This document shows, one piece after another, positions 25,929-61,530 of a stretch of DNA of 64,000 bases. Position numbers and translations under genes: made by a program. Each line of letters opens with the position of its first letter. The stretch's first letter is position 1. The notes beneath the pieces were generated by a model. That model was not told where the DNA came from, searched no databases, and was given only the letters and a program-made list of their open reading frames with translations. The DNA comes from Protula sp. h YS-2021 (lineage: Eukaryota; Annelida; Polychaeta; Sabellida; Serpulidae). Location of the stretch: assembly GCA_949752745.1 (NCBI GenBank), contig OX457027.1, forward strand, positions 90,727,720-90,791,719. The letters run 5' to 3'.

Positions 25929-28900
25929 TCAGACCGGCGGCAGGTCGAGGCCGCTGTAGAGCGAGGACGTATCGGGCTGCTCTTTGCGCATGCGCAGGTG
26001 TTCTATCGTGTTCTGGAAGTGTTTGTTGATCTGTTCAGTCTCCTCGTTCGCTTCGAGATTTGGCAAATCCTCCCGTATCTTCGTTATCACTTGGTTTAAC
26101 ACTTGTACAGTGACCTGCAATAGCACAGGGAAAAGGGTGTTAAATGAGGGTGTAGGGGGAGATCGGGTCATTCTTTTTGAGCAAAGGTATAAATACCGTT
26201 TGTGTGACCTCGCAGGACTGAAACCTCTTTCTCTCGACATTTATTTAGTTGCAGGAATAAATAAAAGTTGAGATAAAAAAATAGGATGATATTTGGTGAA
26301 CATTTTTGTTACAATTTGTAATCGCTAACGAAAAATTAGAGCTCGGATAAAACTACAAAATTAAATTCCCTTAATACGTCAAGTTTCGTGGCTGAAACTT
26401 CTTATTCTGAAATATGCACGCACGATACAAACCTGATCATTTCCTTTCTCATAGAAGTAGATGTAATTGTTGAGTATTTCCACAAAGAGTTGTACTTGTA
26501 CGGCGCTGTCCATGCACTGATTGGCTGTACGTAGTCCCTTCTTCAAGCACTCCAGAACACGCTTACCGTCCCGCATCTGTACAAAAAACACGGCTGCCTA
26601 GCAACGCCCGACATCACTTAGCAACACACACTCACATTCTACCAAGCACCCCAGAACACCTTACCGTCCCGCATATATACCATAGTACACAAAACTGCTT
26701 AGCAACGTCCCGACATCACATAGCAACAGACACTCACATCATCCCATGCAGTATCTTCTTCCAAGAACTCAAGACCACGCTTATCGTTCCGCATCTGTAC
26801 CAAAATACACACAGACGCCCTAGCAAGGTTCAACCATCACTTAGCAACACATATACATGCGTCATCGAGCATGCATAAACAATACACACAAACAATACAC
26901 ACAAACAATACACACAAACACATTCAAGTGTCTTCACCACACATCTGTCTGGGCAGAGGCCCAGTCTGTGTGGAGCTTTCGTCTCCTTGTAAATGTACCC
27001 GTTTTAAAACATCTTGTTTAACCAGAGCAGTGTGCAAGCCCACATATTCCCCACAGGCCCCCATCAGTTAAACACAGCCATCAATAGTCAATCAACAGCT
27101 GGTCCATTTTCCTGGGACGAACCTGGCCCATTTACAATACCGATCTGTGTTTGTTCCCATAGAAGCTACATACCAAGTTTCATTCAAATCCTTGCAGGAG
27201 TTTTTCAGTTATCGTGTAAACAAGCTCTTGATGACCGACCGACAGACACGCGGTCGATCGCATATATTTCCTGTGGGGAATAAACAAGTGGGTAGAATAT
27301 GGACAAGGGATTGATCCTTTACCAGCTAAATCCGCACCATTCTCACAGAGTGCTATTCCCTTCACCATGGGGATTGGGAGAGGGGGTCGGCGTTACCTCT
27401 TTGCCGTCCAGAACAGATTAGAACACAAAGCGAAGCCGCGGCAGTGATGGAGTGGGAGGTGGAGCGGGGGGGGGGGGGGTGTTACCTCTTTGCCGTCATT
27501 CTCCGCCGGTTTGCCCGACCAGAACAGATTAGAACACACAGCGACCCCGCGGCACTGGTCGGGTTTCTTCAGGAGGCGAGAGGCGGCCAGCGCGCACTGG
27601 GTCCGCAGCGGCTCGTGGTTTTCGTCACCAAAACACGTCATCTTCTCAAAGGTGGCGATAATCAGAGTAATGGCGGCCAACTGCGCCTTTGAGTCGCTAA
27701 TTTCGTCTTCGTAAATGGAAAACGCCTGTCCATGAGAAAAATGGATTTTCAATATATTGTTGGTTAAATGTAATTTGGCTGACTCGAAAGCACTGAAGGT
27801 GGTAGGAATGGAGGGGGAGGGGGGTAGGGGTTCAGAGGTAATTTCTAGTCTACGTCTATTTCCACTGAATGATGAGAGATTCAATATTCAACATACTTCT
27901 CGGCGTTTGCATATCGTTTGCATATCGTCACCAGATTGTTTTCCCTTTATATTTATATTGCATTTGCGGTCATGATCCTGTTCAAAAACGCACCTGTGAC
28001 ATGAACTCATATGCGACCGTTTCGTGTTTCTCAAACTCAATTTGATCCGCTGTGAGGGCGCCCTGCAGAAACAGCCGCAGCGGCAGCTCGGCCAGCTCTG
28101 CTTTTATTAGCGCGCCTATTGTCTGGTGGCAGAATGTGAACAGTTTACTGCATTTCTTCTCCCATTTCTCATCCTGTAATGCCAAAACGAAATCACTTTT
28201 TCTTGGGCTTCTTTGAGTTTTACTGGTAGCCTGTGAGTACCTGCAGAGCCACTAAATAAATAATAAGTTACAACCCTGAATATCAAGTTATCATAGAAAT
28301 CACAAAATACGCTATGATTTCTCAATTTTCTAAATGACACTCTTGCTTAGCTTAGAGCTGTCAAGGACCCAGTTTATCCTGACACCTGTCAACATTTTTG
28401 CCAGACATTCGTGGAGACATCTTGTTTTGGTTTTACTGACTACAATACCTAGCTTAATGTAGAATCGTCATTTTCTTTACAATTGGCGGAGAAGACGATA
28501 GTTGACCAAGTGACTGACTGAAATGAATGACTGACCGACTAAGTGATTCACTGGGTGAGGAAGAAGACGATGGTTGACTGGCTGATTGATTGAGTGAATG
28601 ATTGACCGACTAAGTTATTCACTGGGTGTGATAGTAACGCACGTCTTCGCGCTGCCGGCTGTAGCGACCCTCGAGGCCGTAGACTGAGAAGATGGTTGAG
28701 TGGCTGAGTGAGTGAACGACTGGCAGACTAAGTGATTCACTGGGCTAGGAAGAAGACGATGCTTGATTGAGTGATTGATTGAGTGAATGATTGACCGACT
28801 AAGCGATTCACTGGGTGAGAGTTACGCACGCCCTCGCGCTGCTGGTTGTAGCAACCCGCGAGGCGGTAGACGGAGAAGACGAGGGTTGTTTGAGTGATTG

Positions 28901-31900
28901 ACTGAATGATTGACCAAGTGAATCACTGGGTGAGAGAGTTATGAACGTCTTCGCGCTGCTGTTTGTACCGACCCGCGAGGCGGCGGCGAAGACGACGGTT
29001 GATTGAGTGATTGACTGACTGATTGACCAAGTGATTCACTGGGTGACAGAGTTATGCACGTCCTCGCGCTGCTGGCTGTAGCGACCCGCGGGGCGGTAGG
29101 CGGAAAAGACGATGGTTGACTGAGTGACTAACTGAGTGAATGATTGACCGACTACGTTATTCATTGGGAGAGATAGTTACGCACGTCCTCGCGCTGCTGG
29201 CTGTAGCGACCCGCGAGGCGGTAGGCGGAGAAGACGATGGTTGATTGAGTGAGTGACTGAATGATTGACCAAGTGATTCACTGGGTGAGAGAATTACGCA
29301 CGTCAATCAGTCAGTAGGCGAAGACGACGGTTGATTGAGTGATTGACTGACTGAATGATTGACCAAGTGATTCATTGGATGAGATAGTTACGCACGTCCT
29401 CGCGCTGCCGGCTGTAGCGACCCGCGAGGCGGTAGGCTGAGAAGACGATGGTTGACTGAGTGAGTGACTGAGCGAATGATTGACCGACTACGTGATTTAT
29501 TGGATGAGATAGTTACGCACGTCCTCGCGCTGCCGGCTGTAGCGACCCGCGAGGCGGTAGGCGGAGAAGACGATGGTTGATTGAGTGAGTGACTGAGTTA
29601 ATGATTGACCAAGTGAATCATTGGATGAGATAGTTACGCACGTCCTCGCGCTGCTGGCTGTAGCGACCCGCGAGGCGGTAGGCGGAGAAGACGATGGTTG
29701 ATTGAGTGAGTGACTGAGTTAATGATTGACCAAGTGAATCATTGGATGAGATAGTTACGCACGTCCTCGCGCTGCCGGCTGTAGCGACCCGCGAGGCGGT
29801 AGGCGGAGAAGACGATGGTTGACTGAGTGAGTGACTGAGTGAATGATTGACCGACTACGTGATTTATTGGATGAGATTGTTACGCACGTCCTCGCGCTGC
29901 TGGCTGTAGCGACCCGCGAGGCGGTAGGCGGAGAAGACGATGGTTGACTGAGTGAGTGACTGAGTGAATGATTGACCGACTACGTGATTTATTGGATGAG
30001 ATAGTTACGCACGTCCTCGCGCTGCCGGCTGTAGCGACCCGCGAGGCGGTAGGCGGAGAAGACGATGGTTGATTGAGTGAGTGACTGAGTTAATGATTGA
30101 CCAAGTGAATCATTGGATGAGATAGTTACGCACGTCCTCGCGCTGCTGGCTGTAGCGACCCGCGAGGCGGTAGGCGGAGAAGACGATGGTTGACTGAGTG
30201 AGTGACTGAGTGAATGATTGACCAAGTGATTCATTGGGAGAGATAGTTACGCACGTCCTCGCGCTGCTGGCTGTAGCGCCCCGCGAGGCGGTAGGCGGAG
30301 AAGACGATGGTTGACTGAGTGAGAGACTGAGTGATTGACCAAGTGATTCATTGCGTGAGATAGTTACGCACATCCTCGCGCTGCTGGCTGTAGCGACCCG
30401 CGAGGCGGTAGGCGGAGAAGACGATGGTTGATTGAGTGAGTGACTGAGTGAATGATTGACCGACTACGTGATTTATTGGATGAGATAGTTACGCACGTCC
30501 TCGCGCTGCTGGCTGTAGCGACCCGCGAGGCGGTAGGCGGAGAAGACGATGGTTGACTGAGTGAGTGACTGAGTGAATGATTGACCAAGTGATTCATTGG
30601 GAGAGATAGTTACGCACGTCCTCGCGCTGCTGGCTTTACCGACCCGCGAGGCGGTAGGCGGAGAAGACGATGGTTGATTGAGTGATTGACTGACTGAATG
30701 ATTGACCAAGTGATTCATTGGGCGAGATTGTTACGCACGTCCTCGCGCTGCCGGCTGTAGCGACCCGCGAGGCGGTAGGCGGAGAAGACGATGGTTGACT
30801 GAGTGAGTGACTGAGTGAATGATTGACCGACTACGTGATTTATTGGATGAGATAGTTACGCACATCCTCGCGCTGCTGGCTGTAGCGACCCGCGAGGCGG
30901 TAGGCGGAGAAGACGACGGTTGATTGAGTGATTGACTGACTGAATGATTGACCAAGTGATTCATTGGGAGAGATAGTTACGCACGTCCTCGCGCTGCCGG
31001 CTGTAGCGACCCGCGAGGCGGTAGGCGGAGAAGACGATGGTTGACTGAGTGAGTGACTGAGTGAATGATTGACCGACTACGTGATTTATTGGCTGAGATA
31101 GTTACGCACGTCCTCGCGCTGCTGGCTGTAGCGACCCGCGAGGCGGTAGGCGGAGACGACGATGGTTGACTGAGTGAGTGACTGAGTGAATGATTGACCA
31201 AGTGAATCATTGGATGAGATAGTTACGCACGTCCTCGCGCTGCTGGCTGTAGCGACCCGCGAGGCGGTAGGCGGAGAAGACGATGGTTGACTGAGTGAGT
31301 GACTGAGTTAATGATTGACCGACTACGTGATTTATTGGATGAGATAGTTACGCACGTCCTCGCGCTGCTGGCTGTACCGACCCGCGAGGCGGTAGGCGGA
31401 GAAGACGATGGTTGACTGAGTGAGTGACTGAGTGAATGATTGACCGACTACGTGATTTATTGGATGAGATAGTTACGCACGTCCTCGCGCTGCCGGCTGT
31501 AGCGACCCGCGAGGCGGTAGGCGGAGAAGACGATGGTTGACTGAGTGAGTGACTGAGTGAATGATTGACCGACTACGTGATTTATTGGATGAGATAGTTA
31601 CGCACGTCCTCGCGCTGCTGGCTGTAGCGACCCGCGAGGCGGTAGGCGGAGAAGACGATGGTTGACTGAGTGAGTGACTGAGTGAATGATTGACCGACTA
31701 CGTGATTTATTGGATGAGATAGTTACGCACGTCCTCGCGCTGCCGGCTGTAGCGACCCGCGAGGCGGTAGGCGGAGAAGACGATGGTTGACTGAGTGAGT
31801 GACTGAGTGAATGATTGACCGACTACGTGATTTATTGGATGAGATAGTTACGCACGTCCTCGCGCTGCTGGCTGTAGCGACCCGCGAGGCGGTAGGCGGA

Positions 31901-34900
31901 GAAGACGATGGTTGACTGAGTGAGTGACTGAGTGAATGATTGACCGACTACGTGATTTATTGGATGAGATAGTTACGCACGTCCTCGCGCTGCCGGCTGT
32001 AGCGACCCGCGAGGCGGTAGGCGGAGAAGACGATGGTTGACTGAGTGAGTGACTGAGTGAATGATTGACCGACTACGTGATTTATTGGATGAGATAGTTA
32101 CGCACGTCCTCGCGCTGCTGGCTGTAGCGACCCGCGAGGCGGTAGGCGGAGAAGACGATGGTTGACTGAGTGAGTGACTGAGTGAATGATTGACCGACTA
32201 CGTGATTTATTGGATGAGATTGTTACGCACGTCCTCGCGCTGCTGGCTGTAGCGCCCCGCGAGGCGGTAGGCGGAGAAGACGATGGGCGGCAGTGTGTAC
32301 TTGATCCGCTTCACTCCTCCGTTCCCGAAATGCTTCCGCGCTGCGTTTAAGATCTGCAAAGCGCGCGTCACACTTTTTTTGTATACAACAAAAAAAAATA
32401 TTTTTGAAAAATATCTTTGAAAGTAAAAGATAAATCATTCAGATTACAAAATTATACGAATATCTTTCGAAAATCAGACACATTTCTTACTTCGCACACA
32501 AACAACCCTGTATTTTAACGGATGGGATAACATTATATGAAAATGGTAAGGCAACACGAACGAGATACTGGGCGTCGTTATCGTCTGAGGTGAGCTGGTG
32601 AATGAACCTTCCCACAATGCCCTGCTCCTCGGCGAAGTCTTCCGGGTCCTCCCCGCCCTCTGGCTCGTCATTCTGGTCCTGGACCAGCGGCGACACCAAG
32701 CTCAAAATGGCGTCCGTCTGCCCAATAGTTTCAAAGAAATTTGTTTTAATTATTGTAACCCCAAACCCAGTCCACACCCCTCCCCGCAAAAAAATGATAA
32801 TACTAATAAATAACTATGTAGTATGTAATTAGTTCAACATTATATATATATATCTTATCTTATACATATATATTATATATATTGTATCGCAAAACAACCA
32901 ATGGCAATATGAACCTTTTTAATTCCAAGCCGAGTCATTAACCCAAATTTTTTACGCAGCGCTCACTTATTATTTTCATTTATTTACTTATGTCTTTTTA
33001 TTTGTCTTTCTTTCCTTTTATTTTCCTGATGACATAAAATCTGTTTGCTGCTTGACAGATATCTTGTCCTGTTTGATTACGTCATATTTCTACAAGACAA
33101 CACATGGATTGGCTCTCACCTGTTCCTGTGTAGGGATCTCTGTCTGGTTGTCAAGGGCGTTGCTAAGGATATACACACTGAGGTTCTTTCGCGCCGTGTA
33201 ATCAAAGTACTCAAACAGCGGCCCGTAGTGCTCCAGCTTCAGTACCGTCAGTACATCATTGTAGACATCGACGGGTATCTTCATGAGCTTGGCCAGCTCA
33301 CGTGACACGGCGCTGCCACTCTCCAGGCTGTGAGAAATAAACAAAGCAAACACACATTGCGTGGAGAATAGAGAATTTCGCTTTACTGTCAGGCATCCAT
33401 GGTCTAAGCACTAGTCACTGGTCTAATTAAGAGCAACAATCCCTGGTCTTAGTTATTTCACTGGTCTAATGAATAACCCTATTTCCTGGTTTAAGTGAGA
33501 ACTTGAATAAGGTCAGAACAGTACTTCCTGGCCAAAGACAAGAGCACTTTGAATCAGAACACAACTCTCTGGTCTAAATCAAGGGCCACAACTCCAGGGT
33601 CGAAGTCAAGAGCACTACTCATTAGTATAAGTCAAGAGCACTACTCACTGGTTTAAGTCAAAAGCACTACCCAATGGTCTAAGCCAAGAGCATTACTCAT
33701 TGGTATAAGTCAACAGCACTACCCAATGGTCTAAGTCAAGAGCATTACTCATTGGTATAAGTCAAGAGCATTACTCACTGGTCTAAGTCAAGAGCACTAC
33801 TCACTGGTCTAAGTCAAGAGCACTACCCAATGGTCTAAGTCAAGAGCACTACCCAATGGTCTAAGTCAACATCATTACTCATTGGTATAAGTCAAGAGCA
33901 TTACTCACTGGTCTAAGTCAAGAGCACTACCCAATGGTCTAAGTCAAGAGCATTACTCATTGGTATAAGTCAAGAGCACTACTCATTGGTCTAAGTCAAG
34001 AGCACAACCCAATGGTCTAAGTCAAGAGCACTACTCATTGGTATAAGTCAAGAGCACTACTCACTGGTCTAAGTCAAGAGCACTACCCAATGGTCTAAGT
34101 CAAGAGCACTACTCATTGGTATAATTCAAGAGCACAACTCAATGGTCTAAGTCAAAAGCACTACCCAATGGTCTAAGTCAAGAGCATTACTCATTGGTAT
34201 AAGTCAACAGCACTACTCACTGGTCTAAGTCAAGAGCACTACCCAATGGTCTAAGTCAAGAGCACTACTCATTGGTCTAAGTCAAGAGCACTACTCCCTG
34301 GTCTAAGTCAAGAGCACTACCCAATGGTCTAAGTCAAGAGCATTACTCATTGGTATAAGTCAAGAGCACTACTCATTGGTCTAAGTCAAGAGCACTACCC
34401 AATGGTCTAAGTCAAGAGCACTATTCATTGGTATAAGTCAAGAGCACTACTCACTGGTCTAAGTCCAGAGCACTATTCATTGGTATAAGTCAAGAGCGCT
34501 ACTCACTGGTCTAAGTCAAGAGCACTACCCAATGGTCTAAGTCAAGAGCACTACGCATTGGTATAAGTCAAGAGCACTACTCATTGGTCTAAGTCAAGAG
34601 CACTACCCAATGGTCTAAGTCAAGAGCATTACTCATTGGTATAAGTCAAAAGCACTACTCACTGGTCTAAGTCAAGAGCACTACCCAATGGTCTAAGTCA
34701 AGAGCACTACTCATTGGTATAAGTCAAGAGCATTACTCATTGGTATAAGTCAAAAGCACTACTCACTGGTCTAAGTCAAGAGCACTACCCAATGGTCTAA
34801 GTCAAGAGCACTACTCATTGGTATAAGTCAAGAGCACTACTCACTGGTCTAGGTTAAGCCTGTTGAAGATCTCTTCGGTGGTCTCGAGCACTTTGTCCAC

Positions 34901-37900
34901 GTAGTCGATCTTCTCCGGGTAGCAGTGCAGCGCCAGGTTGACAAGGGCTACTTGCAGCGCCACGATGTCTTCTGGCGGCATGTTGGGACGATTCTGGACG
35001 AAAAGAAAGACAAGTTTGTCCAAGGACAAAGTCCCAGCTTACGAAAAGCAATAAGACCCATTCCAGCGTGCATGAGCGAAGGAATTTCCCTGAAATATCA
35101 AGCTTCAAAAGATGAGACGGCAAAGAGCTAGCTCAATAATTAATTTAGCACCGGACCAGAACATAGACCGATAAATGCATACAAAGATTTCTTTCCAAGA
35201 AAAATTGGGAACAGATTTTTTGTATATCTGGTAGACTGGATAGATTGCCATAGATACCTTCAAACAACGCTCGCATTTCGGACCAGTGCGCATATTTATG
35301 TAACTTGCCTCGATGCGCGGTTCTAATTCAGACAAGTGCGCATGTTTATTTAATTTGCGTTGATGCGCGGCTCTCATTTTGGAACAGTGCACATGTTTAT
35401 TTAACTTAATAAAGATTAATGCGCGGTTCTTATTCCAGACCAATGCGCATGTTTATTTTACTTTCGTACTTATTTTGGACAAGTGCACAAGTTTCCTTAG
35501 GTTGTCTTGATGCGCGGGTCACAACATTCGTACATTATCGCCCAATGTTCCCTATTATCGCCCTCCCGAAAAATATTATATTTATCATATTTTCGGGTCC
35601 TAGAATTGTTTCCTGCACTTTTAAAGCGAAAATTACAACTTTCTTGCATTATCGCCCAATATTCCCTATTATCGCCCACCCGAAAAATATCACATTTATC
35701 ATATTTTCGGGTCATAGAATTGATTCCTGCACTTTTAAAGCGAAAATTACAACTTTCTTGCATTATCGCCCAATGTTCCCTATTATCGCCGACACGAAAA
35801 ATATCATATTTATCATATTTTCGGGTCATAGAATTGATTATTGCACTTTTAAAGCGAAAATCACAACTTTCTTACATTATCGCCCAATGTTCCCTATTAT
35901 CGCCCACACGAAAAATATCACATTTATCATATCTTCGGGTCATAGAATTGTTTCCTGCACTTTTAAAGCGAAAATTACAACTTTCTTGCACTATCGCCCA
36001 ATGTTCCCTATTATCGACCATCCGAAAAATATCATATTTATCATATTTTCGGGTCACAGAATTGATTCCTGCACTTTTAAAGCGAAAATTACAATTTTCT
36101 TACATTATCGCAAAATATTCCCTATTATCGCCCATCCAAAAAATATCATATTTTTCATATTTTCGGGACATATAATTGATCCCTGCACTTTTAAAGCGAA
36201 AATTACAACTCTCTTGCATTATCGCCCAATATTCCCTATTATCGCCCATCCGAAAAATATCATATTTATCATAATTTCGGGTTATAGAATTGATTCCTGC
36301 TCTTTTAAAGCGAAAATTACAACTTTCTTACATTATCGCCCAATGTTCCCTATTATCGCCCACACGAAAAATATTATATTTATGATATTTTCGGGTCCTA
36401 GAATTGTTTCCTGCACTTTTAAAGCGAAAATTACAACTTTCTTGCTTTATCGCCCAATATTCCCTGTCATCGCCCACCCGTAAAATATCACATTGATCAT
36501 ATTTTCGGGTCACAGAATTGATTCCTGCACTTTAAAAGCGAAAATTACAACTTTCTTGCATTATCGCCCAATGCTCCCTATTATCGCCCACACGAAAAAT
36601 ATCACATTTATCATATTTTCGGGTCATAGAATTGATTCCTGCACTTTTAAAGCGAAAATTACAACTTTCTTGCATTATCGCCCAATGTTCCCTATTATCG
36701 CCCATCCAAAAAATATCATATTTTTCATATTTTCGGGACATATAATTGATTCCTGCACTTTTAAAGCGAAAAATTACAATTTTCTTACATTATCGCCCAA
36801 TATTCCCTATTATCGCCCATCCGAAAAATATCATATTTATCATATTTTCGGGTTATAGAATTGATTCCTGCTCTTTTAAAGCGAAAATTACAACTTTCTT
36901 ACATCATCGCCCAATGTTCCCTATTATCGCCCACACGAAAAATATTATATTTATGATATTTTCGGGTCCTAGAATTGTTTCCTGCACTTTTAAAGCGAAA
37001 ATTACAACTTTCTTGCTTTATCGCCCAATATTCCCTGTTATCGCCCACCCGTAAAATATCACATTGATCATATTTTCGGGTCACAGAATTGATTCCTGCA
37101 CTTTAAAAGCGAAAATTACAACTTTCTTGCATTATCGCCCAATGCTCCCTATTATCACCCACACGAAAAATATCACATTTATCATATTTTCGGGTCATAG
37201 AATTGATTCCTGCACTTTTAAAGCGAAAATTACAACTTTCTTGCATTATCGCCCAATGTTCCCTATTATCGCCCATCCAAAAAATATCATATTTTTCATA
37301 TTTTCGGGACATATAATTGATTCCTGCACTTTTAAAGCGAAAAATTACAATTTTCTTACATTATCGCCCAATATTCCCTATTATCGCCCACCCGAAAAAT
37401 ATCACATTTATCATATTTTCGGGTCATAGAATTGATTCCTGCACTTTTAAAGCGAAAATTACAACTTTCTTGCATTATCGCCCAATATTCCCTATTATCG
37501 CCCATCCGAAAAATATCATATTTATCATATTTTCGGGTTATAGAATTGATTCCTGCTCTTTTAAAGCGAAAATTACAACTTTCTTACATTATCGCCCAAT
37601 GTTCCCTATTATCGCCCACACGAAAAATATTATATTTATGATATTTTCGGGTCCTAGAATTGTTTCCTGCACTTTTAAAGCGAAAATTACAACTTTCTTG
37701 CTTTATCGCCCAATATTCCCTGTTATCGCCCACCCGTAAAATATCACATTGATCATATTTTCGGGTCACAGAATTGATTCCTGCACTTTAAAAGCGAAAA
37801 TTACAACTTTCTTGCATTATCGCCCAATGCTCCCTATTATCGCCCACACGAAAAATATCACATTTATCATATCTTCGGGTCATAGAATTGATTCCTGCAC

Positions 37901-43900: not shown

Positions 43901-45075
43901 CTAATGCAGTAGAAGGTTAAAAACTCGCGTTTAAAATTTGGTACGAATCGGATGAAAAATAAAAAAGATATTCCACTTTAACTACTTTGTTAAGAAAAAA
44001 AAATGGAAATTTGCCAATTTTTAGAAGTTGCAAACTTTGAAGCTCAGTAGATTCAAAAATAAGTCGAAATTCAAAAATCGAAAAAAGAACTTTTTTCACC
44101 CCTTAGTTCTAGTTTCTTCATGAAAAATTTCGGAATCTTCCGATGAAAAATGAGGGACTAGATAGGTTTTTTCGTATTTTGCCCAAATTGGCAATAAAAT
44201 CACCAAAAATGGTTTAAACCGCAAAAATAAAAATATTTCCTAATGCAGTAAAGGGTTAGGAACTCGTGTTTAAAATTTGGTAAGAATCGGATAAAAAATA
44301 AAAAAGTTATTCCACTTTTAACGGTCGCGGGACGGACAGACGGACGGACGGACGGACAGACGGACGATACTTGCCCCCATCTGTATAGCCCTGTTGGCTA
44401 AAAAGCAAACTGGGCTAAAAAAAAAGACATCGGATAAAAAATGTAGGACGAGATACATTTTAAATTTTTTTCTTCAAAAATTCCCCAAAAATTAAAAAAT
44501 CACCCGATCGACTAGAAAAGCACAAGCCGTATGCACGACACTTTAGGGATGCCTCATACCAAAAATAAATCACATCGGGTCAAAAATGTAGGAGGAGACA
44601 CATTTTAAATTTTTTTCTTTAAAAATTCCCCTAAAATTCAAAAATCACCCGATCGACTAAAAAAGCACAAGCCGTATGCACGACTCCTTAGGGATGCCTC
44701 ACACCAAAAATAAATGACATCGAATCAAAATTGTAGGAGTAGATGCATTTTGAATTATTTTCGAAAATTTTGCTTTAAAAATTCCCCAAAAATACAAAAA
44801 TTGCGCGATCGACTAAAAAAGCACAAGCCGTATGCACGACCCTTTAGGGGTGCCTCATACCAAAAATAAATGACATGGGGTCAAAAATGTAGGAGGAGAT
44901 ACATTTTAAAATTTTTTCTTTAAAAATTCGCCAAAAATTCAAAAATCACCCGATCGACTAGAAAAGCACAAGCCGTATGCACGACCCCTTAGGGATACCT
45001 CACACCAAAAATAAATGACATCGGATCAAAATTGTAGGAGGAGATGCATTTTGAACCAAAGTTTACTAAATAAAC

Positions 45076-45118
<43 letters not shown>

Positions 45119-46839
45119 GGACACCGCCCGCAAACCGATAGGAATACCCCAGCTTACGTGTAACGTAAGCTGGGCTAAAAAAAGCGCATTTTTTCTTCCG
45201 TGCCCAAGTTTGAAGATTACACTTTTTTAAATTAAAAAAATTAAATGATTTTAAAGTTCCCTTTACAATTAACCTCATTAAAATAGTAAATGTACACACA
45301 ACAGTCAGTTGTATAACCACACGCGGTGAAATCACTTTACTGACTGGCAAACTTGTTACTCAGTAACGGAAAGGCAGCCTGGGGATGAAATAAGGTTACG
45401 CCCAGGGAACTGCACTAATGGCATGACTGTAAGTGACGTGGCCGTGACGTACTTGTATAATGAGCGCTATCTGTTGAGAGAAGATGTCAAACAGAGCGAT
45501 GTCCTCTGGAATTCCCGTACTGTTCTCCTTACTCGCATAAGCGGCCAACCTGTGACATGAAAATCACGCGTGATACCACGTGATACGTGCGCCTACCACG
45601 TGATACGCACGTACGATACCATGTGATACGCTAGTGTGACACCACGTGATACGCACATCAGACACCACGTGATCCACTAGTGTACTAGCATGTGATACGT
45701 AGATACGATATGATGTGATACGCACGTGTGACTTCACGTGACACACACGAGTACTACTACGTGATACGCACCTATGATACCACGTGATACGCACGCATGA
45801 TGCCACCCGATACGCACGTGTCGCACCACGTGATACACACGCGCCTCACTACGTGATACGTGTGACACCATGTGATACGCACATGTGACACCACGTGATA
45901 CGCACTATGACACCACGCGCTACGTACGTGTGACACCACGTGATACTGATATACGACACGTGATACGCACACGTGACACCACGTGATACGCACATGAGAC
46001 ACCACGTTATTCACAAGTGTGATACGAACGCGTTACATCACGTGATACACACGAGTACTACCACGTGATACGCACATGTGATATGACGTGATACGCACGT
46101 ATGAGCCACGTGATACGCACGTGTCGCGCCACGTGATACACACGCGCCTTACCACGTGATACGTATATATGACACCACGTGATGACGTCATCCAACAAAG
46201 GCACATTTTCAACAATATTTTTATTTAGTTACATACGTCCTCTTTCACTCTTACTTTTTTATACTTCTATTATTTTTTAAGTTAAATCAATCGTATAACT
46301 GCAAATGAAGTGCAAAAAACCATCAAACCATGCCAAACCATGTCAGTCCACCACCGGATGTTCGTCAGTTCTTTAAATTGGCTGGACCACATCAACGGTG
46401 ATTGAAATGACATGATATTTGCACAACACAACGCTAAACCCGCTCCACATTTGACAACATTCTCTTGTCATACAGCCGCTATATGCCGGCAGGTTTGGTC
46501 TAAGTTATGGAACGAGTCGTACACATTATATGAGCTCCAACAGAGAATAAAACCCCAATCACTTTACCGGTCAATGAGCGATATTATGATGTTTTTGACG
46601 TTCACATCCGGGTGTAAATCCGCGCATGCCTTCAGAAAGTTATTCAGCGTTTGGAGCTGAAAGTCGTCTGGGAAAACCTGAAAGCAAATAATTGATATTT
46701 GAACAAACTCATCCATGAATGGCCACAGCTGACAACGAAGAACGACTACAGCAGCTTTTGCAAAATCTCTTTTTTAATTACTGTTAACCACCTACTAACA
46801 CTTTTACTTTTTTATTATTACTACTTTTATTATTACTAC

Positions 46840-46876
<37 letters not shown>

Positions 46877-49800
46877 AAATCCAGTTTTTTCACCACACAG
46901 AGAATGAAGAAAGTGCATTAGGTGGGGGGGGGGGGGGAGGGGGAGGACAGGGGTAACTGTCTGGATGATGGACTCCATCAGGTAATCCTGTGCGAAGGCA
47001 TCCTTAAAGAAAGTGGGTAGGAGAAAGAGGGGTGGAGGACAGGGGTGACTACCTGAATGATGCACTCCATAAGATACTCTTGTGCGATGGCGTCCTTACA
47101 GCTGACACATTGCTCCAGCACTCCAGGCAACACCAGCTGTAACAGATGTAAACTTAGAGGTATTCATACGTAGCCCTGGCAACACCATATGTAACATGCA
47201 AAAACTTAGAAGCGGTCATAAGTACACCAGGCAACACTAGACGTAACAGTCAAAACCTTAGATGTGTTCATAAGTGACCCTAGCAACACCAGATGTAAAA
47301 TTAGACGTGTTGATAAGTTATCACGCAACACGAGCTATAACGCAGACTCCGAGTTCATTGTAATCCAAACAACACCAAAAGTGATAAAGTAAAACACACA
47401 TGCTTAGAGATTCTAAACACACAGTTATAACGCATCCCAGTGTCAATGCAATCCCTGTAAAGAAATGCTAAATAACTTATGCGGCATATAATCGCGAGCG
47501 ACACCTCGCCAGTTACATTCTACCCGGGCATAAGCCAATGGAACGCTGACAAAGGCTTTGTGACGAAACCGGTTTTGCTTTGCGTAACGAATGTTGCTAA
47601 GTAACACACAGGGGAGTATCTGAGCGATAAAAGGAATTTCTCCTCTGTTTACCTATCAAAGGCATTAATATGTGCGTTTGTGTTATAATAGCGATAGGCC
47701 ATGGGGCTGGTGTGCTTTATTGGGTTCGGCCACTTGTGGAAGACCAGTGAATTCACCGCTGTGCGGTTCGTTCACAAGCCTTCCATACATGTGTGAATCG
47801 AAACCAAACCACACAGCACCATGATCTACCCCTGTATCAGAAACCATCTATCGTGTCTTCGTGCGTCTGTTTGTATTCTCGCACTTCTTTCGCTGGAAAT
47901 TCTCGGTGTTTCTGGCACGAACCAAACAAGAGTAATCGACGGCAAGCTACTAACGTGTTGACATCCCCGTATCCAAGCAACAACTATTGTTTGTACTACA
48001 AATGCACCATGACGTTATTTTCCACCCTGCCCTTTCCAGCAAACCTTTCAGCTAATTTACGAAACCACGCTTCGTGTTAAACAATTATCAATGGACGGCG
48101 ACGCGCATCTGGCACGGGGCTTACCTTTTTGTACGTGTCTAAGTCGACGCTCTCTAGCTGACTGAGTCTCACCAGGTTCGTGCCGACCAGGATCCGCAAC
48201 TCCCTACAACAAGGGCAGAGCGCCATGTTAGTGCTACGGCGTCTTCTGAAGACGTCTGTGAAGACTGATTAATGTCAGCACTGATTATTATCCCCACTGA
48301 TTATAAGAACTCTCTATTGCCAGAACTGATTCTCAGCACTGACTATCAGGACTGCTTATTATTGGCACTAATTATTGCAAAAACTGATTATTTTCCGGAC
48401 TGATTATCAGAACTGATTATCAGAACTGATCACTGTCAACACTTATAACTGCAAGAAGTGACCTTATTAGGCCTGTAAATCTTTGAGGGAACACGAAATT
48501 GTGAAGTATCAAACCTGCCTAAAGCGTCTACCTTGTGCATATTTTCAGACAGACAATTTGATTCTGTTCTATCAATATTCATCAATTTAAAATAACCAAG
48601 AATTTCTCAATCGCTTTCTCGTTCCTTCTTCTCTCTATCCCCATGTGTCTCCCATATGACCTCCTTTCTTACTTCTTCTCTCTACGCCCGAACGACTCAC
48701 CTCCTTTCTTGCTCTCTCATCTCTCTATCCCTGCACGACTCACCTCCTTTCTTGATCCACCTTCTCTCTATCCCCGCACAACTCATCTCCATTCTCGAGT
48801 TACTCCTCTTTTCTTGTGCCTTCTTCTCTCTATCCCCGCACGACTCACCTCCTTTCTTGTTCCTCCTCCTCTCTATCCCAGCACGACTCACCTCCTTTCT
48901 TGACCCCCCCCCCTCCTCCTCTCTATCCCCGCACGACTCATCTCGTTTCTTGCTCTCTCTTCTCTCTATCCCCCCTTCCCTCTATCCCCGCACGACTCAC
49001 CTCCTTTCTTTCTTCTCTCTATCCCCGAGTGACACCTTCTTTCTTGCGCCCCCCTCCTCTCTATCCGTGCAAGACACCTCCTTTTTACTCTCTCTTGTCT
49101 CCATCCCGGCATGGCTCACCTCCTTTCTTGCTCCACCTTCTCTCTATCCCCGCACGACTCACCTCCTTTCTTGCTCTCTTCTCTCAATCCCGGCACGACT
49201 TACCTCATCTCTTGCTCTCTCTTCTCTCCATCCCGGCACGGCTCACCTCCTTTCTTGCTCCACCTTCTCTCTATCCCCGCACGACTCACCTCCTCTCTTG
49301 CTCTCTTCTCTCAATCCCGGCACGACTCACCTCATCTCTTGCTCTCTCTTCTCTCCATCCCGGCACGGCTCACCTCCTTTCTTGCCCCCCCCCCCCCCTC
49401 CTCTCTATCCCAGCACGACTCACCTCCTTTCTTGCTCCCCCTTCTCTCCATCCCGGCACGGCTCACCTCCTTTCTTGCTCCCCCTTCTCTCTATTCCCGC
49501 ACGACTCATCTCCTTTCTTGCTCTCTCTCTTCTCTCTATCCCCGCACGGCTCACCTCCTTTCTTGCTCTCTCTTCTCTCTATCCCTGATTGACTCACCAC
49601 TTTTCTTTCGCCCCTTCCCTCCATCCAAGCACGACTCACCTCCTTTCTTGCTCTCTCTCTTCTCTCTATCAAAGCACGACTTACCTCCTTTTTTGCTCTC
49701 TCTTCTCTCTATCCCCGCACGTCTCACCTTTCTTGCTCTCCCTTCTCTCCATCCCCGCACGACTCACCTCCTTTCTTGCTCTCTCTTCTGTCCATCCCCG

Positions 49801-52800
49801 AGCGACTCACCTCCTTTCTTGCTCTCTCTTCTCTCTATCCCTGATTGACTCACCACTTTTCTTTCGCCCCTTCCCTCCATCCAAGCACGACTCACCTCCT
49901 TTCTTGCTCTCTCTCTTCTCTCTATCAAAGCACGACTTACCTCCTTTTTTGCTCTCTCTTCTCTCTATCCCCGCACGTCTCACCTTTCTTGCTCTCCCTT
50001 CTCTCCATCCCCGCACGACTCACCTCCTTTCTTGCTCTCTCTTCCCTCCATCCCCGCACGACTCACCTCCTTTCTTGCTCTCTCTTCTCTCTATCACGCG
50101 AATGGCCCTGGTGCTGCATGCGCACCCACAGCTTGTTCATCTCGGAGAAGTTGAGGTGGATGAAGTCAATCGTGTCCTGTACAGTGCCCGACTCGGAACC
50201 GGTGCTAAACACACACAAACTCCTCCTCATTAATCCGGATCATCGGGATCACACCAACACAGAGGCGTCGACACCCACGATATACCACCAATTCACACTG
50301 TAATCCGATCGCTTTTAGCACCCATTCATTCGGATACAAGGCCCCTTTTTGGTCACTGTTATCACAGCAAAACTTACCGAGACAGCCAATTTTTATTACA
50401 ATAAGAATTCATCTTATTGTAACTCTGTGAAACGTTGCAGTCTCTCTTGTACATACTAGGTATACACGTTGTATACACACTGCAATCTACTTTATGACTG
50501 TTAATGTGTTTTATTCAAAATCCAACAGTAAGGTAAAGAATTTATTCTCAGCCCAAGGTACCCAGTGGCCAGAGTTCAAATTATATGAATTTCACGTTTA
50601 AAAATACAGAATAAAACAAGATTACAGCAAAATATAAGCATTTGACACCATATGGGAAACCTAGTTCCCTAACTACAAACATAACTTGCCAAAGTATTAC
50701 AAACTGAGTGAAATGCCCCAGCCTCTGAATTTTACCCGCACTGAATCCACCTTGCTGATTTTATAGTTTTTCACCCTGTATTTCACTTTATCTTTCTTTC
50801 ATTTTATTATTCTTTTATTATTATTATTCCTTTTATGTAGACAAGAAACAAAGCGCCACCTGGCGGCTTCCTCCAGCACATCGGGCAAGACGTTCTTGGC
50901 ACACTGCAACAAGTAGTTCCGTAAAAAAAGTCCCCTCAGCGGATGCTGCACGCCGCGGCACATCTCCACCAGGTCCTTCAGGATATCCTTGCGCGACAAT
51001 TCGTTGGACTTTATATAGACCACCCCCACAGTAATCAGCAAGTACCTGGCCAAAAAAAAAAATTAGCCACATTGAAACTGCTGACAATTCTTACAAAACA
51101 AACTACACTTACAAAAATATCGAACAGTTGTTGTTATGGCATTCTCATTTCAATATCTCAGATTTTCACAATATCCCTAAACCGTCCTATTTACAAATTA
51201 TCTCTAAGTTATGACGTATTGATTTGATTATTTTTACACACCACATTCTAATTATGCGACTGACTGAGTACATGGCCTATATTTTACACACCACATTCTG
51301 ATTATGCGACTGATTGAGTACATGGCCTATATTTTACACACCACATTCTGATTATGCGACCGATTGAGTACATGGCCTATATTTTACACACCACATTCTG
51401 ATTATGCGACCGATTGAGTACATGGCCTATATTTTACACACCACATTCTAATTATGCGTCTGATTGAGTACATGGCCTATATTTTACACACCACATTCTA
51501 ATTATGCGTCGGATTGAGTACATGGCCTATATTTTACACACCACATTCTGATTATGCGACCGATTGAGTACATGGCCTATATTTTACACACCACATTCTA
51601 ATTATGCGTCTGATTGAGTACATGGCCTATATTTTAAACACCACATTCTAATTATGCGTCTGATTGAGTACATGGCCTATATTTTACACACCACATTCTA
51701 ATTATGCGACTGATTGAGTACATGGCCTATATTTTACACACCACATTCTAATTATGCGACTGATTGAGTACATGGCCTATATTTTACACACCACATTCTG
51801 ATTATGCGACTGATTGAGTACATGGCCTATATTTTACACACCACATTCTGATTATGCGACTGATTGAGTACATGGCCCATATTTTACACACCACATTCTG
51901 ATTATGCGACTGATTGAGTACATGGCCTATATTTTACACACCACATTCTGATTATGCGACCGATTGAGTACATGGCCTATATTTTACACACCACATTCTA
52001 ATGCGTCTGATTGAGTACATGGCCTATATTTTACACACCACATTCTGATTAAGCGACTGAGTACATGGCCTTAACTTATATTTATTCTGTTCATGAGACT
52101 GGTAGAATATATCGCATTTATTTATATTTATTCTACAGTTTTCAATTAGTAGTACTATGCCGTTGTTGTTTTTTTTTTTCATTCAAATTAAAACACAGCC
52201 ATATTTAAATTTAACTTAATTTTATTTAAATAATTGTGCAATGCAAAAGGTGAAACATGCAATAACACATTTCTGGTCTTCCTGCACTTCAGGCTGCAAG
52301 TCATTCCACTGACTGCAGCATTCGAATCACAGCATCACATACACACATACTCACAGTCTGGGGACAATGTTGCCAGCATACTGCACGAGCTCATACAGAT
52401 CCTGAACGCGGCGACCTTTCTGGAACTCATCCACGAGGTAGAGCTCGAGGTGACGTAACTCGTCCGATATCGCTATGTCTGAGTGTCACGTCAAGGGATT
52501 CGTATAGCTTCATTCAGGGTTCGCGTTGGCGGGGTTTTTGTCCACTTTTTGGGCTTTTTTTTTTTTTACGAAATGACTCACTTTTTCGGAACCCACTGAG
52601 TCTTTCTGGACCCAACTGAGTCACACTTTCCTTTTTTGACTCACTTTCCTGAGAACCCTGAACTTCACATTTTTGTTTCTCATCAATAGCCCTTCTGCCG
52701 TCACTAAATTGTCTGGTGCGGAAAAAAGATGAATTCCGCCTGTGGTAGGGGAGGGGGCGGTGCTGTGTAGGGGATTGTGGGACAAAAAAAAAACCTGACC

Positions 52801-54602
52801 ATATTACATGGTAGTCTATTGTCAAGATAACATGATGGCTGCAAAGGATGGGATAAAGGTCAATATGGAGGACGAATAATTACGCGAAGATATAAAAAAT
52901 CGGCTGTCAGAATCGCAAAGGAAAGGAATAACGAAGACGTTTGCTGTTCTCACACTTGCTTTTGCATTGCTACTCTAACTCCGATACCAGTTTCCTGTAC
53001 ACGTTTTTAGCAAAGGATACAGAGCTCGTAGTAGCCTTTGGGTGACAGCATAGACGTCCGCAGCTCATTCAGCATATTAGAGGCATGCTTCAGACCGTCC
53101 ATCAACTTCCCTTTATCCTACGAATTCATTCGGGAGAAGAAAATAAACTCAGTACTTATTGTAATGTACATTGCATGACTGTTCCAAGGGGCGTGCTCTC
53201 ATTGAAGCTATTGCTCCCAGCATGTACTTGTGAAATATATTGATTGTGCTGTCGAATGCTAATATTATCACGTTAGCGCACTGTATTCTGCTGCTTAAAA
53301 ATAGAATAAACTTGAACCTTAAAATGTTTTGCCGCTGTGGTCGCTTTTTATCGAACATGCCAGAGCAAGATCTACCCGCATCTATCCCCCGATAGTTGAT
53401 TTGACAATCTCCAAGTCGAACGAAGAAAATCGTCGCAAACTACCCCGCCACAATATCACCATGAAATATCCCACTCCCCACCCCCCACCCCCCGTCGCAC
53501 TTAGCTCAAAGGATGACGCCCCTTCTGAAAGACGGTAAGAGGCAGCGTCACCCTCTACCGTAAGGGCACAATGACGACTAAAAGGCCACCCATACACGCA
53601 AGCCACCCCCATTCCGCCCCTACCATAAAATAATAAAAAGAACATTATACATAATAATAATAATAATAACTACACTGGCCAGTGTTTTTGTTTAAAAATA
53701 AACGGATATGTCTCCCCCGCCCCCCCCCCCCCCCAATCAGTCACGTGGAAAAATTCCTTGCTTAAAAGTACATTGGAGAGCCCAAAAAATTGAAAAAAAA
53801 ACGCCAAAAATACACTTTTACATAAAATGAAGAAAAAAAAATTAAAAATTTGCACTATATGTGGGTTCTTCTTGAAACGTTTCAGCCTAACCGAACAAAC
53901 TGCTTCGGAGATATCGGAACAATATGGCCAAAAAACTTAAAAATCAAAAATTTAAAAAATCGCCAAAAATACATTTTCAGCGGAAATGAAGAAAAACTTC
54001 GCAGTAAACATTTGCACTATATGTGGGTTCTTCTTGCCACGTTTCAGCGTAATCCAACAAACTGTTTCGGAGATATCGCAACAATATGACCCAAAAAAGG
54101 TAAAAATCAAAAATTAAAAATTCGCCAAAAATACATTTTCAACGTAGAAAAAAACTCTTCGTGTGTTCTTCTTGTGACGTATCAGCCTTATCCAACGAAC
54201 CGTTTTGGAGATATAGCCTGCCAAAGTGAAAAAAAATGCACGAAACCACTCCCCTCCCCCATGTTCAAAAATTTGCAAAAAATACAATTTTTGAAGGAAC
54301 GAAAAAAAAATAATAACACGGGCATCATCTAGACATGTACCCCAATATGTATGTATGTTTTGAGAAAAATCGAGTCATTAATTTCATAAGAATTCACTGC
54401 GAACAGACGGACGGACGCACCAAATGCTACATATGTCTCCCTTAGGGGAAGACATATAATAATAACAACAAGTAGAGTGATGATTGAAAGCGTCTGATAC
54501 CAGGCAGCGCTTCATCTGGAAGGCCTGGGTCTTGACCACGCTGAGGGCTTCTTCCAGCAGCTTCTCCTGCTCCTCCTGCGGCGACATGTGCGGTGTGGAA
54601 GG
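25929..54602 (-). CDS. VPS35: VPS35 retromer core subunit, 17 coding exons
   Basis: Exons in transcript order: 54501-54602 (ATG at 54587), 53021-53117, 52355-52478, 50860-51045, 50067-50204, 48125-48203, 47053-47136, 46568-46677, 45453-45549, 34845-34993, 33120-33327, 32562-32717, 32231-32353, 27994-28173, 27486-27725, 26433-26576, 25929-26114. All have AG/GT boundaries and join in phase to 795 aa; human VPS35 is 796. VPS35 is the alpha-solenoid scaffold of retromer, recycling endosomal cargo to Golgi and plasma membrane. The VPS26-binding PRLYL motif is at residues 101-105; [28 protein letters not shown] and [14 protein letters not shown] are hallmark segments. The first exon begins at an acceptor, so a non-coding 5' exon lies further right and was not found. 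Most introns carry large tandem repeats, several grown from the exon edges. Confidence 0.97.
26577..26830 (-). repeat. Two degenerate copies of the exon-16 5' edge in intron 15
   Basis: Copies near 26640-26675 and 26755-26800 resemble the acceptor and first codons of exon 16 (CAG then ATGCGGGACGGTAAGCG). The first has lost its acceptor AG; the second keeps ACAG followed by ATGCGGAACGATAAGCG. The flanking CTAGCAACG / CACTTAGCAACA sequence is repeated with them, so the unit is about 100-120 bp. Confidence 0.7.
26878..26925. repeat. ACAATACACACAA microsatellite
   Basis: Three to four copies of a 13-bp unit (AACAATACACACA). Confidence 0.8.
27038..27292. mobile_element. MITE-like element in VPS35 intron 15
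   Basis: The ends CCCACATATTCCCCACAGG and CCTGTGGGGAATA...GTGGG are inverted repeats. The interior has CCAAGTTTCATTCAAATCC and GACCGACCGACAGACACGCG, a layout common among invertebrate short repeats. Confidence 0.55.
27392..27485 (-). repeat. Single copy of the exon-15 3' edge, donor retained, in intron 15
   Basis: The sequence downstream of exon 15 repeats its last codons (CSNLFW-type reading) and GGCAAAGAG with a GTAACGCC donor at 27392-27396, with about 21 bp deleted inside the copy. A run of G separates it from the true exon. Confidence 0.8.
28487..32230 (-). repeat. 123-bp minisatellite made from the exon-13 3' end plus its donor, about 29 copies
   Basis: On the minus strand each unit holds ATCGTCTTCTCCGCCTACCG and onward through AGCCAGCAGCGCGAGGAC, the last 18 codons of exon 13, then the same GTGCGT donor and a short TCACTCAGTCACTCACTCAG spacer. 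Donor-like anchors recur every 122-123 bp from 28631 to the true donor at 32225-32230. Copies next to the exon are nearly identical, with alternating GCTGGC/GCCGGC variants forming 246-bp dimers around 31.5-32.1 kb. Distal copies (28.5-29.3 kb) are diverged and one (29288) lacks the exon part. Confidence 0.95.
32820..32890. repeat. TA-rich simple repeat in intron 11
   Basis: TATATATATATCTTATC and TATATATTATATATATT stretches. Confidence 0.7.
33380..34844 (-). repeat. 26-bp minisatellite grown from the exon-10 donor, about 50 copies
   Basis: On the minus strand exon 10 ends CTAGACCA with donor GTGAGTAGTGCTCTTGAC. The array repeats TTAGACCAGTGAGTAGTGC plus TCTTGAC with a 26-bp period, with variants ACCATTGGGTAG and ACCAATGAGTAG, often in a three-unit order. 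Many units therefore keep a perfect donor context. The end far from the exon (33380-33600) is the most degenerate. Confidence 0.92.
35510..43550. repeat. 114-bp satellite, about 70 copies with higher-order units, in VPS35 intron 9
   Basis: The monomer includes TTATCGCCCAATGTTCCC, TATTATCGCCCACACG, TCATATTTTCGGGTCATAG and CACTTTTAAAGCGAAAATTA. Variant monomers recur together at about 571 and 685 bp, so the array has a five- to six-monomer higher-order period. Because 114 is a multiple of 3 and some frames lack stops, long spurious ORFs (up to 354 codons) cross it. The block TCCCTATTATCGCCCACA resembles TCCCTCATTATCGCCCACA-type sequence in MITE family 1. Confidence 0.95.
43625..44345. repeat. 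Two tandem copies of a unit of about 340 bp
   Basis: TTTTTTCACCCCTTAGTTCT and GGAATCTTCCGATGAAAAAT recur once each per unit. It ends in a GGAC/GGACA run (44331-44366). Confidence 0.8.
44395..45060. repeat. Four tandem copies of a unit of about 155 bp
   Basis: GAAAAGCACAAGCCGTATGC (or a one-base variant) recurs at about 44515, 44664, 44818 and 44961 with ATCACCCGATCGACTA before it. Confidence 0.85.
45076..45118. repeat. (AACT)n microsatellite
   Basis: About ten AACT units. It is followed by an inverted pair, CCCAGCTTACGT and ACGTAAGCTGGG. Confidence 0.9.
45560..46190. repeat. CACGTG-rich degenerate tandem repeat in intron 8, abutting exon 9
   Basis: Units of 20-25 bp of the form ACCACGTGATACGCACGTGTG repeat with much variation; written as ACCACGTGATACGC plus a variable tail. 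Most carry the E-box palindrome CACGTG. The array starts about 15 bp upstream of the exon-9 acceptor. Confidence 0.85.
46808..46876. repeat. (TTA)n microsatellite
   Basis: TTATTATTACTACTTT followed by about twelve TTA units in intron 7. Confidence 0.9.
46945..47052 (-). repeat. Single copy of the exon-7 3' edge in intron 7, donor lost
   Basis: The segment 46966-47012 reads [15 protein letters not shown], against [15 protein letters not shown] at the end of exon 7. The flanking CACCCCTGTCCTCC sequence is duplicated too, but the donor GTAGTC has become ACAGTT, so this copy cannot splice at that point. Confidence 0.85.
47137..48124. other. VPS35 intron 6, no other gene seen
   Basis: A loose repeat of GCAACACCAGATGTAAC-like pieces lies at about 47125-47300, the first overlapping the exon-7 acceptor (CAACACCAGCTGTAACAG). 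This hints at another degenerate exon-edge duplication. Confidence 0.4.
48270..48450. repeat. Degenerate AGAACTGATTATC repeat in intron 5
   Basis: Units of about 16-22 bp containing ACTGATTATC recur about eight times. Confidence 0.6.
48650..50066 (-). repeat. 43-50-bp minisatellite made from the exon-5 3' end plus its donor, about 30 copies
   Basis: Exon 5 ends AGAGAGCAAGAAAGGAG on the minus strand with donor GTGAGTCGTG. The array repeats this end with its donor every 41-52 bp (GATAGAGAGAAGAGAGAGC, AAGAAAGGAG, GTGAGTCGTGCGGG). A block of 256 bp (about 49566-49810 and 49822-50066) is itself duplicated. Long Ser/Leu-rich + strand ORFs across it are artefacts. Confidence 0.93.
51236..52070. repeat. 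60-bp minisatellite, about 14 nearly identical copies, in intron 3
   Basis: ATTTTACACACCACATTCTG and TTGAGTACATGGCCTAT recur with an exact 60-bp period; differences are mostly single bases. I see no exon sequence in this unit, unlike the other VPS35 arrays. Confidence 0.95.
53840..54250. repeat. Tandem repeat of about 155 bp, 2.5 copies, in intron 1
   Basis: TTTGCACTATATGTGGGTTC, CGTTTCAGCCTAA-like and GGAGATATCG blocks recur. Confidence 0.8.
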
Positions 54603-55140
54603 CTGAAAGTACAACAGGGTTACCGTGGTTATACAAGGCACTCCCCCCCCCCCACACATCCGGTGACATGTGCAGTGTGGAAGGCTGAAAGTACAACAGG
54701 GTTACCGTGGTTATACAAGGCACTTTCCACCCCCAACCCACACACCCGGAAGACATGTGCGGTATCGAAGGCTGAAAGTACAGGGCAGTTACCGTGGTTA
54801 TATAAGGCACTTCCCAACCCCCCCCCCCCCCCCCCCCACGCACACACACCCGGTGACATGTGCAGTGTAGAAGGCTGAAAGCACAACATGATTACCTTGG
54901 TTATACAAGGCACTTCCCAACCATCCCCCCTCCCCCCATGTGCGGTGTGCGAGGCTGAAAGTACAACACGGTGACCGTGGTTGTACAGGGCACCTCATGC
55001 CCTCCCCCCCCCCCCCCCCACGGGCCTCGCTTTACGGTGGCTGTGCAAGGAGACCCCCACTTTATACTCCCCCCGCCAACCCCCCCCCCCCCGCCCCCCC
55101 CCCAAATTTCCCGCTACATGCGCACTGAGGTGGGCTGAAA
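54603..55140 (-). repeat. Five copies of the exon-1 5' edge (acceptor plus start-codon region)
   Basis: On the minus strand the true edge is TTGTACTTTCAG followed by CCTTCCACACCGCACATGTC. Copies with CTTTCAG and CACATGT-like sequence lie near 54667-54690, 54753-54780, 54857-54880, 54938-54960 and 55117-55140, in units of about 85-180 bp that include ACCACGGTAACCCTGTTG and long G-runs. They thus repeat an acceptor and the initiator ATG context. Confidence 0.85.
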
Positions 55141-55193
55141 GCACAACAGGGATCTCGTGTTATCGCGGTTATACTACGTTATGTTATCCCAGC

Positions 55194-60372: not shown

Positions 60373-60374
60373 AT

Positions 60375-61507: not shown

Positions 61508-61530
61508 CTCTATAGTGAGTTGTCTTAATA

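What the first reader, a model, noticed from the sequence alone, without database searches (positions are those of the whole stretch)
25929..55140. VPS35 exon edges repeatedly duplicated into adjacent introns, several expanded into minisatellites that keep the splice site
Seen directly at seven of 17 coding exons. Exons 1 and 16 duplicate the acceptor side; exons 5, 7, 10, 13 and 15 duplicate the donor side. Copy numbers run from one (exons 7, 15) to about 30-50 (exons 5, 10, 13), giving what looks like a growth series from a single duplication to a kilobase array. Repeats starting exactly at exon edges in one gene argue for a mechanism tied to splice junctions or transcription, not random slippage. 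I recall exon-boundary minisatellites being described in an amphioxus gene; if that is right, this is an extreme multi-exon case and points to a lancelet host.
Basis: partly seen in the sequence, partly recalled or inferred. Interest (0 to 1): 0.9.

Follow-up and report, generated by a model that had tools for sequence, protein, structure and literature searches.

The report
Duplicated exon edges in spiralian VPS35
In one ordinary housekeeping gene of a spiralian animal (a relative of worms and molluscs, not a lancelet), eight exon ends have been copied into the neighbouring introns, some of them dozens of times with a usable-looking splice site in many copies, which gives a natural test of how cells choose the right splice site.

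Summary
The minus-strand gene is VPS35, with 17 clean GT-AG coding exons. Exon-to-intron matches at E<0.01 occur in 6 of 34 adjacent and 0 of 272 non-adjacent pairs. The repeats reach 14-79 nt into exons rather than starting at the edge. Splice sites are mostly kept at reader exons 1, 5 and 13 but lost in 37 of 48 copies at exon 10.

The lancelet inference fails: VPS35 places the host in Spiralia (99/99) and rejects pairing with Branchiostoma (p-AU 7.7e-7). The structures match lancelet 'mirages' but in another phylum.

A tolerance model expects 3.2-3.8 of 16 crossing against 8 seen (p 0.004-0.016; 0.048-0.089 without the e2 and e8-acceptor arrays), so targeting is suggested, not shown. New here: the four exon-crossing arrays with 7 or more units decay away from the exon, while 0 of 6 intron-only arrays tested (of 8) do. 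49 of 54 decoy donors score at or above their native site, and none would give an intact protein.

The parts
54579..55159 (-). e2 acceptor-side array (reader exon 1), ~80-100 bp units: acceptor plus 24 nt of exon; exon e2 itself is 54501-54602
   Evidence: 5 of 5 scorable copies keep AG
48614..50096 (-). e6 donor-side array (reader exon 5), 43-bp unit = about 29 nt exon + 14 nt intron; exon e6 50067-50204
   Evidence: 30 copies, 26 of 28 scorable keep GT
   Evidence: E 1e-20; only E 0.54 by exon BLAST; AG kept in 1 of 4 scorable copies
46939..47101 (-). e8 donor-side single duplication (reader exon 7), 49 nt of exon in the copy
   Evidence: (E 2e-7); GT lost
33407..34858 (-). e11 donor-side array (reader exon 10), 26-bp unit with 14 nt of exon end; exon e11 34845-34993
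   Evidence: no exon BLAST hit at E<=1; 48 copies, GT kept in 11
28490..32297 (-). e14 donor-side array (reader exon 13), ~125-bp unit = ~56 nt exon + ~69 nt intron; exon e14 32231-32353
   Evidence: 29 of 29 scorable copies keep GT
27404..27564 (-). e16 donor-side single duplication (reader exon 15); the copy lacks 22 nt within the exon end but keeps the GT; exon e16 27486-27725
   Evidence: (E 2.5e-10 and a second piece E 0.45)
26533..26851 (-). e17 acceptor-side triplicate (reader exon 16), two extra copies with 33-44 nt of exon; exon e17 26433-26576
   Evidence: AG kept in 1 of 2 copies
25929..54602 (-). VPS35 coding exons e2-e18, 800 aa
35519..43555 (.). intron-only 114-bp array, 70 units, control array that crosses no exon edge
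51232..52123 (.). intron-only 50-bp array, control

Best explanation
These are exon-boundary minisatellites, structurally like amphioxus mirages, in a spiralian VPS35 gene. Local tandem duplication happens at a high rate across this gene (shown: 16 local arrays, none with a detected relative elsewhere in the window). A duplication whose unit straddles an exon edge is tolerated, because the copy next to the exon body still gives the correct junction and the surplus copies become intron. Such duplications then grow by slippage or unequal exchange in blocks of several units, while purifying selection pins the native copy (inferred). Splicing must keep choosing the exon-proximal site although most decoy donors score as well or better (scores shown, choice inferred). 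Placement is mainly tolerance, perhaps with a mild bias towards exon edges. The host lineage differs from lancelets, so the phenomenon arose independently or is more widespread than reported.
For: 16 arrays with 8 crossing, 5 donor and 3 acceptor. The tolerance model expects 3.2-3.8. 0 of 16 arrays has a match elsewhere in the window at E 1e-5, and the exon ends under arrays are not accelerated in amino-acid change (excess -0.034, rotation p 0.92). Multi-unit block periods: TRF gives 43 and 256 bp among others at e6, 125 and 246 bp at e14, and self-matches at e11 have a smallest offset of 78 for a 26-bp unit. 0 of 54 decoy donors give an in-frame stop-free extension, and 49 of 54 score at or above the native site. 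Spiralian placement. Amphioxus precedent with regular splicing suggested by RT-PCR (PMC3087553, passages).
Against: Crossings are about twice the tolerance expectation (p 0.004-0.016). The gradient away from the exon in the 4 exon-crossing arrays with 7 or more units is not directly predicted by random tolerance. No RNA or independent assembly was available, so normal splicing and array lengths are unverified.
Confidence: 0.65

Rival explanations
1. Duplication is targeted to exon edges: some property of exon-intron boundaries (chromatin, RNA-DNA hybrids, replication pausing) seeds tandem duplication there, and the array grows from the exon-anchored end.
For: 8 of 16 arrays cross an edge against 3.2-3.8 expected. 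Similarity decays with distance from the exon in 4 of 4 crossing arrays with 7 or more units (e6 rho -0.71, e11 -0.50, e14 -0.59, e2 -0.89), and no trend at p<0.05 is seen in any of the 6 intron-only arrays tested (of 8), 4 of them with 7 or more units. The gradient follows the exon, not the direction of transcription (three donor arrays, one acceptor array).
Against: The enrichment weakens to p 0.048-0.089 without the e2 and e8-acceptor arrays. 4 of 4 is only p 0.06 as a one-sided sign test, and units within an array are not independent. The native e14 unit differs at two shared sites from the copies nearest to it, so it is not their recent donor (first 12 copies printed). It is one gene.
Confidence: 0.22
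2. The decoy arrays are selected because they regulate VPS35 splicing or expression.
For: High retention of GT in e6 and e14 copies (26 of 28, 29 of 29).
Against: 37 of 48 e11 copies have lost the GT. 0 of 54 decoy donors give an intact reading frame. Retention is also explained by young age and homogenisation (inference).
Confidence: 0.06
3. Assembly artefact: the repeats were multiplied or misplaced by the assembler.
For: Tandem arrays are error-prone, and no reads or second assembly could be checked.
Against: Single, well-diverged duplications (82-84%) at e8 and e16 cannot be assembler copies of one read. Units differ from one another, and the 17-exon reading frame is intact.
Confidence: 0.04

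Closest known systems
Amphioxus 'mirages' (Adh3; globins BflGb6 and BflGb9; PGBD5; troponin C)
   Same: Minisatellite-like tandem repeats that span exon-intron boundaries, at either end of exons; many but not all copies keep AG/GT; units of 10-72 bp in Adh3 and about 150-160 bp in the globins (PMC3087553 and PMC3902484, passages read)
   Different: Host is a spiralian, not a cephalochordate; 8 of 33 edges of one gene; about 30-48 copies in three arrays against 6 and 3 units in two BflGb6 haplotypes (Adh3 copy numbers were not seen); decay away from the exon measured here. Length polymorphism and normal splicing not tested here.
Internal tandem repeats at exon-intron boundaries in human segmental-duplication genes
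   Same: Minisatellites at exon-intron boundaries that can alter splicing (PMC2812944, passages)
   Different: Those were found as variable repeats in exons of recent paralogs, kept in the transcript or forming new introns; here the copies lie in introns of a conserved gene.
Intron gain by tandem duplication (Rogers model, as cited in PMC3087553)
   Same: Duplication of a segment carrying a splice signal
   Different: No new intron is shown here; the copies lie inside introns of the present gene.
Repeat-rich first intron of earthworm metallothionein genes
   Same: Minisatellite clusters in an intron of a spiralian gene (PMC12783039, passages)
   Different: The passages read do not describe repeats that contain exon edges.

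Membership tests
Mirage (exon-boundary minisatellite) | Tandem repeats whose unit spans an exon-intron boundary | tested here: met
   8 of 33 edges
Mirage (exon-boundary minisatellite) | Occurs at both 5' and 3' exon boundaries | tested here: met
   3 acceptor and 5 donor edges
Mirage (exon-boundary minisatellite) | Many but not all copies keep AG/GT | tested here: met
   29 of 29 at e14, 26 of 28 at e6, 5 of 5 at e2, 11 of 48 at e11, 1 of 4 at e8 acceptor, 1 of 2 at e17, 0 of 1 at e8 donor
Mirage (exon-boundary minisatellite) | Normal splicing of the mRNA despite the repeats | not testable with these tools
   no RNA; only indirect, 0 of 54 decoy donors give an intact protein
Mirage (exon-boundary minisatellite) | Germline and somatic length instability | not testable with these tools
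   one sequence only
Mirage (exon-boundary minisatellite) | Cephalochordate host (reported distribution, not part of the structural definition) | tested here: not met
   in Spiralia 99/99; window+Branchiostoma p-AU 7.7e-7
Introner elements | Near-identical copies dispersed at many loci | tested here: not met
   0 of 16 arrays has a relative elsewhere in the 64-kb window; the rest of the genome could not be searched. The definition is recalled.
Intron gain by tandem duplication | New intron position created by the duplicated splice signals | not tested
   intron positions of relatives were not available

The most novel reading that the evidence does not exclude
Exon edges in this lineage are true seeding sites for tandem duplication. 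Arrays start across an exon boundary and grow from the exon-anchored end outward, leaving decayed old copies at the far end. It is a directional, exon-tethered minisatellite process found in at least two unrelated animal groups.
Probability: 0.22. Interest if true: 0.78.

Novelty: new member of a known kind. Interest (0 to 1): 0.5.

Why it matters
Exon-boundary minisatellites are discussed in the papers whose passages I read mainly as a feature of cephalochordates. Finding eight in one conserved gene of a spiralian means they are not a lancelet peculiarity. The e14 and e6 arrays are ready-made tests of splice-site choice: downstream copies carry much of the same exon end and donor, yet only the exon-proximal donor can give a working protein, so position rather than local sequence must decide (inference). 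If edges prove to be preferred sites genome-wide, it would also bear on how introns lengthen and how new introns arise.

Tried and rejected
Lancelet host: rejected by tree and AU tests. Nemertean sister: borderline (p-AU 0.0475). Annelid sister: not rejected (p 0.5), so the phylum is unresolved. RNA genes and tRNAs as the source of units: none found in the window. Dispersed element as the source of units: no match of any of the 16 arrays elsewhere in the window at E 1e-5. Faster protein change under arrays: not seen against 11 relatives; the overlapped residues are less conserved among those relatives too (0.740 against 0.816 pairwise). First polarity measure used, for e14 and e2, a reference unit taken from the exon-near part and so was biased; it was replaced by best-match-to-any-other-unit. 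One search left out two of the 8 intron-only arrays (53795-54217 and 43647-44318) and the two single duplications (e8 donor, e16). The donor scoring matrix is recalled and approximate; it ranks copies against the native site only, and its strict motifs miss some copies (20 at e6, 9 at e11 and 24 at e14, against 26, 11 and 29 by alignment). The automatic alignment cut the e16 copy short; its GT was read from the sequence and found by motif. Script 44 stopped with an index error in its last loop after its results were printed; only e18, which carries no array, was missing. Own-genome search did not complete, so no genome-wide test was done.

Full report
Observation. The finding lies in a VPS35 gene on the minus strand. 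A 17-exon coding model with GT-AG introns throughout gives 800 residues without a stop, and residues 3-795 align to a solved VPS35 chain (7bln_A, 1318.9 bits; human by recall). The start of e2, PSTPH, aligns after the M of MPSTPH in Lineus, so an ATG-bearing exon probably sits upstream; it was not located.

Self-comparison of the pre-mRNA region gave 16 separate tandem arrays, together about 19.9 kb. Eight cross one exon edge each: acceptors of e2, e8 and e17, and donors of e6, e8, e11, e14 and e16. There are 33 edges in the model. The exon part in the arrays is 14-79 nt. Exon-against-intron BLAST found strong matches only in introns next to the exon: 6 of 34 adjacent pairs against 0 of 272 others at E<0.01 (Fisher 1.2e-6). 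The e8-acceptor overlap scored only E 0.54 there and e11 gave no hit at E<=1; these two rest on the self-comparison.

Splice-site retention is uneven: 5 of 5 at e2, 26 of 28 at e6 and 29 of 29 at e14, but 11 of 48 at e11, 1 of 4 at e8 acceptor, 1 of 2 at e17 and 0 of 1 at e8 donor; the e16 copy keeps its GT. By strict motif, 54 downstream donors were found at e6, e11, e14 and e16 (20, 9, 24, 1). 49 of them score at or above the native site with an approximate, recalled matrix, and 0 of 54 would give an extension both in frame and free of stops. So a working mRNA requires the exon-proximal donor. That this is what happens is inference; no RNA was available.

Is it more than chance placement? 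I collapsed every array to one unit and dropped units at random on the gene (10,869 nt after collapsing, 2,403 exonic), discarding placements that would disrupt an exon. The model expects 3.81, 3.54, 3.36 or 3.17 crossings of 16 for a minimum overlap of 5, 8, 10 or 12 nt; observing 8 or more has p 0.016, 0.009, 0.006 and 0.004. Without the e2 array (its intron is cut short in the test) p is 0.016-0.036, and without the e8 acceptor as well 0.048-0.089. Tolerance therefore explains about half of the crossings, and the excess is suggestive. Limits: the present minimal period stands in for the founding unit, and this is one gene.

Polarity. For each unit I took its best match to any other part of the same array, for 6 of the 8 crossing and 6 of the 8 intron-only arrays. 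In the four crossing arrays with at least seven units, similarity falls with distance from the exon: e6 rho -0.71 (p 3e-6, 34 units), e11 -0.50 (p 1e-4, 55), e14 -0.59 (p 5e-4, 30), e2 -0.89 (p 0.007, 7). None of the six intron-only arrays tested shows a trend at p<0.05 (rho from -0.40 to +0.67; units 70, 17, 27, 4, 5, 7; the 17-unit array has p 0.08). Two smaller crossing arrays (e17, e8 acceptor) have three units and cannot be judged. The p-values overstate the case because neighbouring units share ancestry; as a one-sided sign test 4 of 4 is 0.06. The gradient is tied to the exon and not to transcription, since it runs downstream from the donors and upstream from the acceptor (one case). 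In e14 the copies next to the exon share two differences from the native copy, so homogenisation goes on among units and largely leaves out the native one, as PMC3087553 describes for the cluster boundaries of a globin mirage.

Coding effect. The 109 residues encoded under arrays are no more changed in this species than their conservation among 11 relatives predicts (excess -0.034, rotation p 0.92). Purifying selection evidently holds the native copy.

Host. VPS35 is 81.0% identical to Lineus, 80.3% to Capitella and 74.4% to Branchiostoma floridae. A 23-row tree puts it with nemerteans, a brachiopod, annelids and molluscs at 99/99. Holding it with Branchiostoma costs 80 log-likelihood units (p-AU 7.7e-7), and with all chordates 70 (1.3e-11); an annelid affinity is compatible (p 0.5), a nemertean one is borderline (0.0475). 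22 named relatives were used, out of 120 listed and 4938 matched; phylum labels are recalled from the species names.

Literature. 'Mirages' in amphioxus Adh3, globins, TnC and PGBD5 are described in passages of PMC3087553 and PMC3902484; the original 2002 paper is not held. In ten text searches, judged by titles and abstract starts of the papers listed (two lists were capped: 20 of 115, 12 of 35), I saw no exon-boundary minisatellite outside cephalochordates except repeats at exon-intron boundaries of human segmental-duplication genes (PMC2812944, passages). The library lacks most subscription papers, so this is not proof of absence.

Verdict. What is new, as far as these searches go, is the phylum, the number of edges in one gene, the decoy-donor analysis and the exon-tethered decay. 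Targeting of edges remains open and can be tested with the whole genome.

Noticed in passing
59117-63139: Long near-perfect inverted repeats (arms of 431 nt 100%, 194 nt 99%, 156 nt 99%, 112 nt 99%) flank a centre holding a PC4-like ORF (60992-61408, minus, PF02229 E 1.5e-7): looks like a young terminal-inverted-repeat or fold-back element.
   Followed up: partly
1-15000: ORF-rich stretch with an Adeno_IVa2/Pox A32-like ATPase ORF (67-753) and an adenovirus-type C5 protease ORF (4342-4800, 21.5 bits against a cut-off of 21.3), plus a 1281-codon ORF without a Pfam match: resembles a Polinton/Maverick-type virus-like element next to the gene (the name is recalled; 7 of the 9 ORFs scanned there had no Pfam match).
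   Followed up: partly
35519-43555: An 8-kb array of 70 copies of a 114-bp unit makes up most of the 10.5-kb intron before e11; it crosses no exon edge and shows no significant end-to-end trend.
   Followed up: partly
protein P0001: Pseudoscorpion VPS35 of 1385 aa aligns in two overlapping parts (query 1-613 and 266-787), so the gene or its model carries a partly doubled VPS35.
   Followed up: no
VPS35 residues under arrays: Exon ends that carry arrays encode residues less conserved among 11 relatives (0.740 against 0.816 mean pairwise identity); arrays may persist more easily at less constrained ends.
   Followed up: no
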